From the NCBI RefSeq assembly GCF_000317145.1, contig NC_019697.1, forward strand, positions 62,001-126,000: 64,000 bases of DNA, written 5' to 3'. Positions 34,872-39,971 of this stretch are shown one piece after another (position 1 is the first letter of the stretch; each line of letters begins with the position of its first letter). Below the pieces are notes generated by a model, which was given only the letters and a program-made list of their open reading frames with translations, was not told the DNA's origin and did not search any database. The position numbers and the translations under genes were made by a program. Source of the stretch: Chamaesiphon minutus PCC 6605. Its GTDB lineage: Bacteria; Cyanobacteriota; Cyanobacteriia; Cyanobacteriales; Chamaesiphonaceae.

Positions 34872-34960
34872 AGTGCAAAAGCCTAAAGCCTAATCCCTAA
34901 AGCCTAATCCCTAAAGCCTAAAGCCTAAAGCCTAAAGCCTAATCCCTATCCCCTACCCCC
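34872..34960. repeat. heptamer short tandem repeats (STRR), block 2
   Basis: At least ten heptamers of CCTAAAG and CCTAATC in mixed order. It lies between the convergent J-domain and kinase genes and ends at the kinase stop codon. Confidence 0.75.
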
Positions 34961-37020
34961 TACCGCTCGATACTGACAAATCCAGCCTTCTCTAGCAAGC
35001 TTTGTCCTTGCTTGGTTTTGAGTAAATTGGCATAAGCTTCGCCAGCTTTTTGACGACCTGGGTCGGTGGTTTTAATAATCACATAAAGTTGGCGAGTGAG
35101 GGGATATTCTTGAGTTTTAATTACTTTAGTCTCTAATTTATTACGTTGTCCTTTGTTGCAATCTGCAACAGATTTCAATGGTTCTTGATAGGGTTTGACT
35201 AAATTATCTGCCGTTTTACCGATCGCCAACGGTTTGGTACTGCAATAATCAACTATAACTTCCTTAGCAGCACCGAAGTAAATCCCGCCAGGATTCTTAG
35301 CAACTTGCTGTAAGCCTTCAGTCGTATTGCTAACGGTTTGAAATTGCAATTTATCCTCTTTCTTCAATACTAAATCCTTGAAAGAAGAAACCGTTCCACC
35401 CGCATTCTCTGGGCGAGAAAAGGCCACGATCGGGATATTTTGACCGCCAACTTGACTCCAATTAGTAACTTTTCCTATATAAATATCTCGTAATTGGTCT
35501 AATGTTAATCCGGTAAGTTTGAGCTGAGGATTGACAACTACACTCAGCGCGTCATAAGCTACGGCTTCTTGTTTTAGTTGATTTGTCTTGACGCGATCGT
35601 CATCTTTGTATTTAGATTTTTCTAAAGATATCGAAGATTGTGCAAAATCAATGTCGCCTTCGAGCAGCCAGCAAATCCCAGCATTAGAACCTGGGTTACT
35701 GCTACACTTACCATTTTTAGTCGATTTGAAATCAGGAGAACTGGCATCTGTATAAACGATATCAAATTGAGGATATACACCTCTAATCGCAGCATCGATC
35801 GAAGATTGTAACTGTCGAGTAGTTGCCCAACTCGTACTTCCCCCAAATTTAAATACCCCCTGCGGCACATCTTTAATTGCTGTAAAAGATTCACCCGTAC
35901 TCTTACTACTAGTTCCTGGTACTAGAGAGTTTCTATTACCTAAAATATACATTGCCAAAGCAGAGAATAATAACAATAGTGCAGTCGATACAACCAAAAC
36001 TGGTAGCAATTTTTTGAATGGGGACAGTCTGTGCGGAGCTAAAGGAACTGCCAGCGGTGCCCGATTGGCTACCTGTATCTGCTGTCTCTCAGAGATCGTC
36101 GGGGGTGGTGGTGGTTGATAACTGATATTCTGACGGGTGATTATTGGCGATAAGGCCGCAATTTCTCTAAAAATGGTTGCTGTAGTATCTGGACGTTGAC
36201 GAGGATCGTCTTGCATCAATCGATCGATGAGATTCGAGAAGTCGGTAGATACATTTGTAGTTTTATCCCGCCAGATTAACAGATTGCGATATGAATCGTG
36301 TAGCTCGACTGGCTCTTTACCCGTGAGTAGATACACAAAGGTACGTCCCAAAGAGAAGAAGTCCGACTGAGCGGAAGTCTCTCCTAGCTCCTGCTCTGGA
36401 GCCGCATAACCGGGCGTAAAGATCCGCGTCTTTTGTCCGCTAGCAGTATTAACGGCGGCTTGCTTGACTGCACCAAAATCGATCGCGACTAATTGTCCGT
36501 CGGGTTGGAGAATGATATTACTCGGCTTGATATCGCGGTGAAAAATGCCGCGCTGGTGAATTTCTTGGAGGATCTGTGTCAACTGCGAGAGCCAACCAAT
36601 CGCCGTTTTTTGGTCGATCGGTCGCTTCATCACTTTGATATACTCTTCTAGATCCATCCCAAAGATCCGCTCCATCACTAGGCAATGTAGGGCTGTCTGG
36701 GAGTCTTTGGGAGAGTATAAAAAGAAATCTTCAACTAAGGGAATACCCGAAATCCCTTCGCCAGCAAGACTTTCTAGCACCCGATATTCACGATCGAATA
36801 ATTCGATCGCTTTGGTATTATTACTTTTGAGGACTTTTAAGACTTTGGGCACCCCACGCTCGGTAACTTCATAGGTATCCCCAAAACCGCCTTTTTTGCT
36901 CATTAATTTGGCAACGCGATATTTGCCTGCTAGGAGCAGTTCTGAGCCACAGTTTTGACAAAATAACATCCGATCGGAATTGTCCGATCGCATACACTGA
37001 GGATTGATACACAGACTCAT
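34960..37020 (-). CDS. zinc-ribbon Ser/Thr kinase fused to a phosphate-binding-type receptor
   Basis: A 686-residue transmembrane signalling protein. It begins with a zinc ribbon with C4, C9, C21 and C24. Next is a Hanks kinase at about 33-290, with GGFGDTY, HRDIKPSN (161-168), DFG (181-183) and APEQ. A Pro-rich linker leads to one membrane helix (about 338-360), followed by a PstS-like periplasmic binding domain at about 385-686 (VFKFGGSTSWATTRQLQ, FSRPENAGGTVSSFKD). The outside domain presumably binds phosphate or a similar ligand and controls the inside kinase; that link is inferred from topology. It lies 124 bases downstream of the ParB-like gene on the same strand. Confidence 0.85.
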   Translation of the reverse strand: MSLCINPQCMRSDNSDRMLFCQNCGSELLLAGKYRVAKLMSKKGGFGDTYEVTERGVPKVLKVLKSNNTKAIELFDREYRVLESLAGEGISGIPLVEDFFLYSPKDSQTALHCLVMERIFGMDLEEYIKVMKRPIDQKTAIGWLSQLTQILQEIHQRGIFHRDIKPSNIILQPDGQLVAIDFGAVKQAAVNTASGQKTRIFTPGYAAPEQELGETSAQSDFFSLGRTFVYLLTGKEPVELHDSYRNLLIWRDKTTNVSTDFSNLIDRLMQDDPRQRPDTTATIFREIAALSPIITRQNISYQPPPPPTISERQQIQVANRAPLAVPLAPHRLSPFKKLLPVLVVSTALLLLFSALAMYILGNRNSLVPGTSSKSTGESFTAIKDVPQGVFKFGGSTSWATTRQLQSSIDAAIRGVYPQFDIVYTDASSPDFKSTKNGKCSSNPGSNAGICWLLEGDIDFAQSSISLEKSKYKDDDRVKTNQLKQEAVAYDALSVVVNPQLKLTGLTLDQLRDIYIGKVTNWSQVGGQNIPIVAFSRPENAGGTVSSFKDLVLKKEDKLQFQTVSNTTEGLQQVAKNPGGIYFGAAKEVIVDYCSTKPLAIGKTADNLVKPYQEPLKSVADCNKGQRNKLETKVIKTQEYPLTRQLYVIIKTTDPGRQKAGEAYANLLKTKQGQSLLEKAGFVSIER

Positions 37021-37144: not shown

Positions 37145-38380
37145 CTATTTTAACTTGTCAATAATTTTCTTAATCGCTGCCTCTTTTAATCCAATATATT
37201 TGGCATCGAGAATCATTTCCCAGCTTTCGATCTGACGATCTGGTTGACTGTTGCGATAGTCAATCAGATTGGGAATAAATTTGACGCTAGTTTTTAGTCC
37301 CGATCTTTCCATACTTACAGTAAGTTGCTGTTGATTCAGAGTATTAATTAGATTGAGGGTATTAGTCGCTTTAGTCGGATCGATCGATGATAAGAAATTT
37401 GATGATGTCTTACTGTTTGCGATAGATTTACTTGTTTTTACAGCAGCTAACTCTTGTGGCTCTGGTTGTTTCGGAGGCTCTAAGTTACTAACAACGGGTG
37501 ATGCTGGAATATCGCTCGTCTTAGCTATTTTATTGCGGGTAGTGGACTTAGTTGTATTCTTAGGCGTAGCTACTTCCGGCTCTGGTTGTTTGGCTAAAGC
37601 TTCATCGCTAGGAATAGATGGTAATGGAATATCGCTGGTTGTAGCTGCTTTCTTACTTATAGTAGATTTAGTCGTTTTCTTCGGAGCGGTTGTTTGCTCT
37701 GGTTGAATGGGTAAAGCTTCCCCACTACGAATAGATGACGAGGTGATGCTAGATCGAGCTGTTTGGTTGTGTGGAATAGGCTCAATAGTTGTAGCTGCGC
37801 TCTCTGTTTGTGACGATCGATCCGAGTTAAGTATATCTAAAATCTCATCGTGCTTAGTAAGTCGATCTAAGATCGGTTGAATTTGTTGCGAGATCTTAGC
37901 TTCTAGTACTGGTAATAATGGCTCTGCCGAAGTCAGTGTGTCTAAGATCTTATCGTGCTGAGCCAGTTGCTCTAAAATCGGTTGGAGTTGTTGAGATATC
38001 TTAGCTTCTACGATCGATTCTACTCGCTTTAATGATAAACGATCGTCTGTCTTATCACTAACATTAACTGCTGGCTCTCCTGATAATAATGCAAGTTGAG
38101 CTATCGCCGATTTTCGATTACTATCGTCGATCACAAAAGCATTCACCATTTCCGCTTTTGCTAAGTTTTTTTCTTTAGCTCTTACGGCTGCATAATATTC
38201 TCGATGTCCCTCAATAACTTTATACTTGCCAGCTCCAGTTTCTTGTAAGATTAACGGACGCAGTAACCCATCAACTTCTAAAATTAAATCGGCTAATTGT
38301 TCTAATTCAGATTCGATAAAATTTGCTCTTGGCAAACTCGATTTAATTGATTTTACATCTACAAAAAAACATTTAATCAT
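37145..38380 (-). CDS. ParB-like protein with long repetitive linker
   Basis: A 411-residue protein. Residues about 20-110 are ParB/Srx-like (LEQLADLI...GLLRPLILQETGAGKYKVIEGHREYYAAVRA); the usual GERR motif reads GHRE. A helical segment has two copies of the AKISQQ(L/I)QPIL(E/D)(Q/R)L unit. A low-complexity linker of near-repeated TTKSTxxKxAxTSDIP units (about 235-325) follows, then a conserved-looking C-terminal domain. No helix-turn-helix DNA-binding domain of the plasmid type is obvious. It is 133 bases downstream of the ParA fusion and likely its partner. Specificity is unknown. Confidence 0.65.
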   Translation of the reverse strand: MIKCFFVDVKSIKSSLPRANFIESELEQLADLILEVDGLLRPLILQETGAGKYKVIEGHREYYAAVRAKEKNLAKAEMVNAFVIDDSNRKSAIAQLALLSGEPAVNVSDKTDDRLSLKRVESIVEAKISQQLQPILEQLAQHDKILDTLTSAEPLLPVLEAKISQQIQPILDRLTKHDEILDILNSDRSSQTESAATTIEPIPHNQTARSSITSSSIRSGEALPIQPEQTTAPKKTTKSTISKKAATTSDIPLPSIPSDEALAKQPEPEVATPKNTTKSTTRNKIAKTSDIPASPVVSNLEPPKQPEPQELAAVKTSKSIANSKTSSNFLSSIDPTKATNTLNLINTLNQQQLTVSMERSGLKTSVKFIPNLIDYRNSQPDRQIESWEMILDAKYIGLKEAAIKKIIDKLK

Positions 38381-38513
38381 TGATTATATCTCAATTTTAT
38401 TTGTGAATCGCTCCTATTTCGATCGAGCAATAACACTCGATCGTTATCTCTCGAATTTCTCAACATTAGCGTAATGCAAATCGCTATCCTATATTTTCTA
38501 GCTTCTGCTTTCA

Positions 38514-39899
38514 CTATTTCAGACCAATCTTAGTCAGAACTTCCTGTGCCAAAACTTCAAACTCCATTGCTGAAACTTGAGCACTGCTCTTGACTTCATT
38601 AGCATACTTAAAGATCGATTTAGGATCTGGATATTCGAGGTCGCCAACAATCACAGTTTTATTAAAAGATTCTGATAAGGCAGTGCGATCGTAAATAACT
38701 GACTCCATTAGTGGCATTTCATATCGTTTACCGATAACTTCTCGTTGCTTGGGGAAAGTATATTCGATAAATCGAGCGTTAGTAGAAATTTTTGAAGCTA
38801 ATACACCCAAGAGCTGGATCGGTTTTTTAGCAATAATCGATCGAGTTTCATCCATTGCTGTAATAAATTTCTTCACCGTAGGTAAACCCTGGTTAGCGAA
38901 AGGCTTGAGATCGGAGGGTATAATTAGATAGTCGGCAGTAAGTAGTGCGACTTCGGCATAAATATCACGAGATGGTGGAGTATCGAAGATAACAATATCA
39001 TAATTGTTTTCTACTCGCTTGAGCTTCTCGATCAGTCTGTTGCGACTTGCCATTATTGTTGTCAATTCGCCCTGCTTGTCGATTAAATTAATATGTGCCG
39101 GAATTACTGCAATTTCTGGATCGCTAAAATATTGTGATTCGCGCACGATCTCATGGATAAAATTGGTGTCGCCACTACTAATTAAATGACAAACGTTGCG
39201 ATCTCGTAAGTCGTCTTCTTCTTCAAATTGAAACTTTACCAAACCCGTTGCAAAAGTACTATTAGCTTGAGCATCGATATCGATTAATAGCACTCGATAG
39301 CCTCTTTTGCTCAGAGCCGCAGCAAGATTAGTGGAGACGGTAGTTTTACCGACTCCACCTTTATTATGATAAATGGCAATAGTTTTCATATCTAACAAGG
39401 GGGAAGATGCAGAAATTGTTAAGGATACAGGCTGCGGTGGTGGCGACAGCGTGGGTGAATTTTGGGCGAACTGTTTGCGGGTAAAGTCACGTCCGATTAG
39501 GGAAATTATATCTGCTAATCGAGCGTCAATATCTTGTGTTGCGCATCGCAAGACTAACTCTACCGTTCCTGCTGTCTGATGATAAATTCTTAAGTCTTTG
39601 CCATTTGTCAACAACCCATAACTAATATCTAAACTAGTTAGATAGCTGCGGAGCTGATATACGTGCTTATCTAAATTTTTGCGCGGATGCTTTGCTTCGA
39701 TAATTAAGCCGATCGAGGGCACACCTAATTTTAATGGTAGTTTTTGGGTAAAAGCGAGAAAGTCTAGCCGAATCTTCCCAAACCTTACTTCCTGATGCCA
39801 TGTGTCGGGAGAGTAGCCTAGTTTTGGTAGTAAGTAGCCAACGATAAGTTTACTTTCGACTTCGCTTTCATTCCGACATAATTCGGGATCGAAACTCAA
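38514..39899 (-). CDS. PD-(D/E)XK nuclease-like domain fused to ParA ATPase
   Basis: A 461-residue two-domain protein. Residues 1-140 resemble the N-terminal nuclease domain of type I restriction HsdR: N-terminal Glu (RNESEVES), D46 in GKIRLDFLAF, E68 and K70 in LIIEAKHP, then VYQLRSYL. A Pro-rich linker leads to a ParA ATPase from 171, with the deviant Walker A KGGVGKTT (180-187), LIDIDAQAN and VIFDTPPS. The start is TTG with AGAGG upstream. An ATG at the ParA boundary has no ribosome site, so the fusion is probably made as one chain. Role unknown: DNA-anchored partition, defence or positioning. Confidence 0.75.
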   Translation of the reverse strand: MSFDPELCRNESEVESKLIVGYLLPKLGYSPDTWHQEVRFGKIRLDFLAFTQKLPLKLGVPSIGLIIEAKHPRKNLDKHVYQLRSYLTSLDISYGLLTNGKDLRIYHQTAGTVELVLRCATQDIDARLADIISLIGRDFTRKQFAQNSPTLSPPPQPVSLTISASSPLLDMKTIAIYHNKGGVGKTTVSTNLAAALSKRGYRVLLIDIDAQANSTFATGLVKFQFEEEDDLRDRNVCHLISSGDTNFIHEIVRESQYFSDPEIAVIPAHINLIDKQGELTTIMASRNRLIEKLKRVENNYDIVIFDTPPSRDIYAEVALLTADYLIIPSDLKPFANQGLPTVKKFITAMDETRSIIAKKPIQLLGVLASKISTNARFIEYTFPKQREVIGKRYEMPLMESVIYDRTALSESFNKTVIVGDLEYPDPKSIFKYANEVKSSAQVSAMEFEVLAQEVLTKIGLK

Positions 39900-39971
39900 T
39901 ATTAACCTCTAGATTTACTGGTGAATTTGATACTAGGATAGCGCGTTAATAGCCAGCAAACTATTAACTTT

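What the first reader, a model, noticed from the sequence alone, without database searches (positions are those of the whole stretch)
37145..39899. HsdR-type nuclease domain fused to ParA, with a ParB-like partner
Seen: one chain carries a PD-(D/E)XK signature (D46, E68, K70, with an upstream Glu) followed by a complete ParA ATPase. The TTG start has a good AGAGG site, and the internal ATG at the ParA boundary has none, so the fusion looks genuine. The next same-strand gene is ParB-like, with GHRE in place of GERR and long repeat-rich linkers. Known: ParA/ParB segregate DNA or position cargo, and HsdR-N domains cut or bind DNA. Inference: a chromosomal partition-like system coupled to DNA cleavage or DNA sensing, perhaps anti-plasmid or anti-phage defence. 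There is no replication initiator or iteron set nearby, so it is not an ordinary plasmid locus.
Basis: partly seen in the sequence, partly recalled or inferred. Interest (0 to 1): 0.75.

Follow-up and report, generated by a model that had tools for sequence, protein, structure and literature searches.

The report
Nuclease-ParA gene with swapped partner cassette
A cyanobacterial chromosome gene joins a probable DNA-cutting domain to a ParA-type DNA-partition motor; relatives show that the cutting part is inherited with the host genome while the motor and its ParB-like partner are swapped together as a cassette, as if a fixed weapon were given changing guidance parts.

Summary
The 461-aa ORF (38514-39899, minus) is an HsdR_N-type PD-(D/E)XK domain fused to a complete ParA, followed by a ParB_N-like gene. 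Related fusions occur in about 15% of sampled cyanobacteria: 44 of 386 genomes have this type and 14 more have a distant sister type. E15, D46, E68, K70 and Y86 are invariant in 109 sequences, and 113 of 114 fusions have the partner next door. The partner has no HTH and no canonical GERR or LG-R/K-G motif. It is ParB_N, coiled coil and a C-terminal HhH or SAP/Rho_N domain. Two unexpected features emerged. (1) In relatives at one fixed locus the nuclease domain follows the flanking genes (identity ~85%, r 0.6-0.8). ParA and ParB do not (r ~0), yet they track each other (r ~0.8), so they are exchanged as one cassette behind a constant nuclease. (2) Most relatives keep an internal ATG exactly at the ParA start, with a Shine-Dalgarno site under synonymous-codon selection, while the fusion starts at a conserved TTG. 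One gene thus probably makes rare nuclease-ParA and common ParA. The window itself lacks the internal site. Best reading: a chromosomal conflict or DNA-surveillance module, not ordinary partition. Biochemistry is untested.

The parts
38514..39899 (-). Fusion gene: HsdR_N-type PD-(D/E)XK domain + ParA ATPase, 461 aa, TTG start
39906..39910 (-). Shine-Dalgarno-like AGAGG before the TTG start
   Evidence: in relatives SD 4-mers peak at -14/-13 before this start
39480..39899 (-). HsdR_N / PD-(D/E)XK domain, residues 1-140; lineage-locked constant part in relatives
   Evidence: Pfam PF13588 and PF04313; Mantel tests
39855..39857 (-). Codon E15, predicted helix-A catalytic/structural glutamate
   Evidence: invariant in 109 sequences
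39762..39764 (-). Codon D46 (PD-(D/E)XK aspartate)
   Evidence: invariant in 109 sequences
39690..39698 (-). Codons E68-A69-K70 (ExK motif)
   Evidence: E and K invariant in 109 sequences
39387..39389 (-). Internal ATG, M171, at the start of the ParA domain; internal start in most relatives, but no SD here
   Evidence: Met in 89 of 96 fusions, SD in 70 of 89
38517..39389 (-). ParA domain, residues 171-461, deviant Walker A HNKGGVGKTT; first half of the exchangeable cassette
   Evidence: AAA_31 180.7 bits; Soj/ParA fold Z 32-35
37145..38380 (-). Partner gene, ParB_N-like, 411 aa; second half of the cassette
   Evidence: PF02195 32 bits; partner beside 113 of 114 fusions
38081..38380 (-). ParB_N fold, residues 1-100, GHREYYAA in place of the GERR motif
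   Evidence: Foldseek match to Spo0J, E 8e-4
37802..38035 (-). Coiled coil, residues 116-193, internally duplicated
   Evidence: model helices H116-149 and H156-193
37148..37378 (-). C-terminal helical domain, residues 335-411, aligned with the HhH region of relatives
   Evidence: pLDDT about 74-95; HHH_3/HHH_6/DUF655 matches in relatives

Best explanation
It is a two-gene chromosomal module of cyanobacteria, sensor/regulator plus nuclease, built on a ParA-ParB chassis. SHOWN by sequence: a conserved, apparently intact PD-(D/E)XK domain fused to an intact ParA; an adjacent ParB_N-coiled-coil partner, usually with a C-terminal HhH or SAP-like nucleic-acid-binding domain; exchange of the ParA+partner half as a unit behind a constant nuclease domain; and, in most relatives, signals for two nested products (a TTG-started nuclease-ParA and an ATG-started ParA). 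INFERRED: ParA dimerises with ATP on DNA, and the partner (dimerised by its coiled coil, without sequence-specific HTH/parS) binds DNA non-specifically or by structure and triggers ParA. The few nuclease-bearing ParA subunits are thereby assembled on, or released onto, target DNA, where paired PD-(D/E)XK domains cut. The most likely target is foreign or aberrant DNA, such as a competing plasmid, incoming phage or transforming DNA, because the recognition half is exchanged by recombination while the effector half is constant, a pattern expected under conflict with mobile elements.
For: Catalytic residues invariant across two sister types that share only about 30% identity in this domain; N-domain dN/dS 0.11. 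Partner beside 113 of 114 fusions. No canonical ParA-binding LG[RK]G motif (0 of 76) and the GERR arginines replaced; variable C-terminal HhH/SAP/Rho_N domains. Cassette exchange: Mantel flank~N r 0.6-0.8 (p 2e-4) for ileS, the 294-aa ATPase and a glycosyltransferase, flank~ParA about 0, ParA~B 0.77-0.81. 25 cassette changes on the N tree against 2 on the ParA tree. AU p 4e-47 against one N-domain clade for cassette group 0. DNA profile L028/L057: flanks and N domain 92-100%, cassette mostly 41-84%, 94-100% again right after the partner's stop. Dual start: SD peak at -13/-12 before M171, AGG for 49 of 53 arginines there against 16% elsewhere.
Against: No activity data. The locus lies among housekeeping genes, not in a defence island, and is vertically stable in Nostocales. 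The nuclease domain is as conserved as IleS, more than is usual for a defence effector. Exchange of a co-adapted ParA-ParB pair could also reflect incompatibility avoidance in a segregation role. The internal SD is absent in the window's own copy, and no cassette exchange was seen within the six Chamaesiphon-type copies.
Confidence: 0.45

Rival explanations
1. An accessory partition/positioning system: ParA and the partner move or space some DNA or protein cargo, and the PD-(D/E)XK domain is only a DNA-binding anchor.
For: Intact ParA fold, co-adapted ParA-B pair, chromosomal stable locus, some relatives with ParA and partner but no nuclease domain (L137, L138, L140, L079).
Against: All catalytic residues are invariant over about 30% identity, which mere DNA binding does not need. 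No HTH in the partner; the genome has its own canonical-looking ParAB.
Confidence: 0.25
2. A DNA repair, recombination or transformation factor: the nuclease processes branched or incoming DNA recognised by the HhH/SAP domain, and ParA distributes it over the polyploid nucleoid.
For: HhH_3 (ComEA-type) and SAP matches in partners; housekeeping-level conservation of the nuclease domain.
Against: Patchy presence (about 15% of genomes) and exchange of the regulatory half do not fit a core repair factor.
Confidence: 0.17
3. A relic of an integrated plasmid partition locus that by chance joined a restriction fragment and is drifting.
For: Frameshifted copies exist (L134, L135, L136, L078, L004, L038).
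Against: Purifying selection (dN/dS 0.11 and 0.07), invariant active site, more than 100 intact copies.
Confidence: 0.03

Closest known systems
ParABS chromosome/plasmid partition (Soj/Spo0J, ParA type Ib)
   Same: ParA fold (Z 32-35 to Soj/ParA structures); ParB_N-fold partner in the same operon.
   Different: N-terminal nuclease domain; partner without HTH, GERR motif or canonical ParA-binding motif; no parS known.
Type I restriction subunit HsdR, N-terminal nuclease domain (PF04313/PF13588)
   Same: PD-(D/E)XK core residues and the Pfam match; weak PDB profile matches to HsdR 3h1t and restriction enzyme BpuSI 3s1s.
   Different: No motor helicase on the chain and no HsdM or HsdS seen near the locus; ParA takes the NTPase place.
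repABC plasmid operons (PMC2783167)
   Same: Parts of one replication/partition operon have different histories while the operon order is kept.
   Different: Here the constant partner is a nuclease domain in the same chain, on the chromosome, with no replication initiator.
ParB-CTPase-fold fusions surveyed in PNAS 2025 (PMC12704722)
   Same: ParB_N joined to other domains.
   Different: The survey's main text reports only the DUF3850 fusion as consistently beside parA, and names no HhH or SAP fusion and no HsdR_N-ParA.
PadC and McdA/McdB positioning systems
   Same: ParA with a non-canonical partner (PadC and McdA structures among the matches).
   Different: No nuclease, no known cassette exchange; cargo here unknown.

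Membership tests
ParA/Soj ATPase | Deviant Walker A KGGVGKTT and ParA fold | tested here: met
   PF13614 180.7 bits; VIA-align Z 34.3, rmsd 2.0 over 255 residues to 8ray
ParA/Soj ATPase | ATP-dependent DNA binding stimulated by ParB | not testable with these tools
   needs biochemistry
PD-(D/E)XK nuclease (HsdR_N) | Conserved E...D...ExK residues | tested here: met
   E15, D46, E68, K70 invariant in 109 sequences; 27 of 27 match HSDR_N_2
PD-(D/E)XK nuclease (HsdR_N) | Fold match of the domain | tested here: inconclusive
   Model confident for only part of residues 1-140; the fold search was filled by ParA; sequence profile matches to 3s1s and 3h1t weak, E 0.02-0.07
PD-(D/E)XK nuclease (HsdR_N) | DNA cleavage | not testable with these tools
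   needs biochemistry
Canonical ParB | ParB_N fold | tested here: met
   52 of 52 members match PF02195 at E up to 1; Foldseek to Spo0J
Canonical ParB | GERR/P-motif and HTH DNA-binding domain | tested here: not met
   GxFE in most, GHRE here; no HTH family matched in the window protein or listed for relatives
Canonical ParB | N-terminal ParA-binding motif LG-R/K-GL | tested here: not met
   0 of 76 with LG[RK]G; motif as defined in PMC12704722
ParABS | parS sites near the operon | not tested
   no site search was made
Type I restriction-modification | HsdM and HsdS partners and helicase motor | tested here: not met
   Helicase motor absent from the chain. No recurrent HsdM/HsdS-like neighbour recognised in 80 loci by inspection, without a dedicated search
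Known anti-phage systems in PADLOC-DB 2.0 | Specific model match | tested here: not met
   Only partial or weak matches (best: the ATPase part of PDC-M28B, 34.7 bits) and nothing for the partner

The most novel reading that the evidence does not exclude
A new class of polymorphic chromosomal immunity: a constant, rarely translated nuclease domain steered by interchangeable ParA-ParB cassettes whose specificity (perhaps by mimicking the partition complexes of plasmids) decides which DNA is destroyed. ParA alone, made from an internal start in most relatives, sets the dose.
Probability: 0.3. Interest if true: 0.88.

Novelty: new variant of a known kind. Interest (0 to 1): 0.76.

Why it matters
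ParA-ParB systems are known for moving DNA or cargo. A conserved nuclease on the ParA chain, with the ParA-ParB half exchanged behind it, would link partition biology to DNA destruction. It would give a natural test of what drives partition-cassette diversity: incompatibility or arms race. The nested-start arrangement offers a simple way to dose a dangerous effector. No description was found in the searched library.

Tried and rejected
Plasmid or phage origin: no plasmid or phage record covers 80% of the protein, best identities about 30% in the ParA part only; viral contigs gave none. Defence island: neighbours are housekeeping; the PADLOC matches of the adjacent kinase are generic kinase matches. 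PDC-M28B resemblance: only the Walker A region aligns. Fold search for the nuclease domain: the list was filled by ParA, so it is uninformative. Mutual exclusion of the two types: no genome holds both intact fusions, but only about 1.6 would be expected by chance, so this is not significant. Programmed frameshifting in split copies: breaks lie at different places (in Walker A, after Walker A, further on), so ordinary lesions. L139's different N terminus is a helicase fragment read through, not a new fusion partner. That scan hit one MAG named Chloroflexaceae, which may be misbinned.

Full report
Setting. The window is G000:C1:62001-126000 of a 6.76 Mb, three-contig cyanobacterial genome whose nearest named relatives for this locus are Chamaesiphon. 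The fusion is single-copy on the chromosome. The genome has four other ParB_N genes, among them a ParA/ParB pair at C1:1.883 Mb that looks canonical.

Observation. ORF 38514-39899 (-) encodes 461 aa from TTG, with AGAGG upstream. Residues 19-109 match HSDR_N_2 above the Pfam cut-off and residues 171-461 are a ParA. The second gene 37145-38380 (-) is ParB_N-like. An AlphaFold2 model is confident for ParA (closest to Soj/ParA, Z 32-35) and partly for the N-terminal domain. It has helix 11-27, then a low-confidence stretch around residues 35-60, strand 65-69 carrying the ExK, helix 76-90 and further strands, which is compatible with PD-(D/E)XK but not proof. The partner model has a ParB_N fold (best match Spo0J, E 8e-4; the PadC ParB-like protein is also among the matches), a long coiled coil, a disordered linker and a confident C-terminal helical domain.

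Family. A scan of 84,980 species genomes gave 80 kept loci, nearly all named as cyanobacteria. Whole-genome search of 386 genomes of the phylum gave 44 intact fusions of this type plus split or ParA-only forms, and 14 of a distant sister type of 450-520 aa. The sister type also has HSDR_N_2 plus ParA. In 12 of 13 cases it also has a downstream gene that ends in a coiled coil and an HhH or SAP/Rho_N-like domain; the ParB_N fold there is weak by Pfam. In all, 113 of 114 fusions with room downstream have the partner, usually within a few bases; in the window the gap is 133 nt. E15, D46, E68, K70 and Y86 are invariant in 109 sequences. The chance that four named sites would all fall among the 16 most conserved columns of 146 is 1e-4. 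The N domain evolves with dN/dS 0.11. This argues for a working metal-dependent nuclease rather than a relic, but cleavage is not shown.

Partner. All 52 sampled partners match ParB_N. The P-motif reads G[HD]FEYYAA in most and GHREYYAA here, and none of 76 has LG[RK]G. The C terminus is helix-hairpin-helix in many members and Rho_N/SAP in others, so the DNA contact is probably non-sequence-specific. Loss of the GERR arginines does not settle nucleotide binding: the 2025 survey of this fold states that neither sequence nor AlphaFold3 currently predicts nucleotide specificity reliably (PMC12704722, section heading).

Cassette exchange. In Nostocales the module sits at recurrent sites, one of them between a 294-aa ParA-like ATPase next to ileS and glycosyltransferase genes. 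Across 17 to 38 loci the N domain follows its flanks: r 0.81 with IleS, 0.61 with the ATPase, 0.65 with the downstream glycosyltransferase, each p 2e-4. The ParA half and the partner do not follow the flanks (r about 0, at most 0.17), but they follow each other (0.73-0.81). Two of the six flanks tested were uninformative for N: the histidine kinase, with little variation, and GT4. The ParA halves form three main groups of 47, 32 and 16 members; the window is in the second. The group changes 25 times on the N tree and twice on the ParA tree, and N-domain data reject one clade for the largest group (AU p 4e-47). Among pairs with N domain at least 95% identical, 22 of 46 have ParA under 65%. For Anabaena catenula against A. 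lutea (L028/L057) DNA identity is mostly 92-100% upstream and through the N domain, mostly 41-84% across ParA and the partner, and 94-100% again directly after the partner. Breakpoints cluster at residues 170-190, with some at 100-140. No such exchange is visible among the six Chamaesiphon-type copies, all in one group. The sister type occupies the same site in at least one genome (L142: ATPase, fusion, partner, glycosyltransferase), so the whole module can be replaced too.

Nested starts. In 96 fusions of this type the codon aligned with the window's start is TTG in 84, with SD 4-mers peaking at -14/-13. The next Met is usually around residue 65-69, inside the domain, so the weak start is needed for the nuclease domain. 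At residue 171, where ParA-only relatives begin, 89 of 96 have ATG, and 70 of those 89 have an SD-like site, against 7% before random codons. The peak is at -13/-12. In the three codons concerned arginine is AGG in 49 of 53 (16% elsewhere, p 2e-33) and Lys/Glu codons end in G in 64% (23% elsewhere, p 9e-19). The sequences are related, so these p values overstate independence, but all three main cassette groups show the site. In the sister type 6 of 13 have one. Inference: most relatives make ParA in addition to a rarer nuclease-ParA.

Reading. A constant effector-like half and an exchanged recognition-like half are what one expects of a system in conflict with other DNA. In repABC plasmids, too, parts of the partition/replication operon have separate histories and coexisting operons are well differentiated (PMC2783167). 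Against this stand the housekeeping surroundings and the strong conservation of the nuclease domain. I therefore put a conflict/DNA-surveillance role at about 0.45, with an accessory segregation or positioning role and a DNA-repair/transformation role as main rivals. Novelty: the components are known, and the library searches found no description of the combination, the cassette exchange or the nested start. That library lacks most subscription journals. The survey closest in topic names only the ParB-DUF3850 fusion as consistently beside parA.

Noticed in passing
L009:4512-5396 and equivalents; G000:C1:3350051-3350929: A conserved 294-aa ParA-like ATPase (KGGVGKTT) lies divergently just upstream of the fusion in many Nostocales and near the sister type in L132, L142, L143; in the window's genome it is unlinked. 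Its role is unknown.
   Followed up: partly
L045:8120-8875 (13 loci): Directly downstream of the partner in 13 loci is a 251-aa protein whose N terminus weakly resembles the Z-alpha (Z-DNA-binding) winged helix (17.5 bits, cut-off 21), with a hydrophobic, probably membrane-spanning stretch.
   Followed up: partly
L134:3380-3460, L135:3140-3200, L136: Broken copies of the fusion: a small deletion inside Walker A in L134 and a one-base lesion in L135, with the nuclease part still open.
   Followed up: partly
L034:4758-5636 (same as in L103): A stand-alone ParA of the same family (81% identical to the ParA half of the fusion) sits just upstream of the fusion, perhaps a leftover of a cassette exchange or a duplication.
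   Followed up: no
L128:3392-4764: Next to the sister-type fusion lies a pair of genes that by sequence look like a DUF4276-type protein and an SMC-like AAA ATPase, a pairing often seen in candidate defence loci (own judgement, not searched).
   Followed up: no
window 34960-37020 (-): Ser/Thr protein kinase fused to a phosphate-binding-protein-like (PBP_like_2) domain, beside the module in this and some other Chamaesiphon genomes.
   Followed up: no
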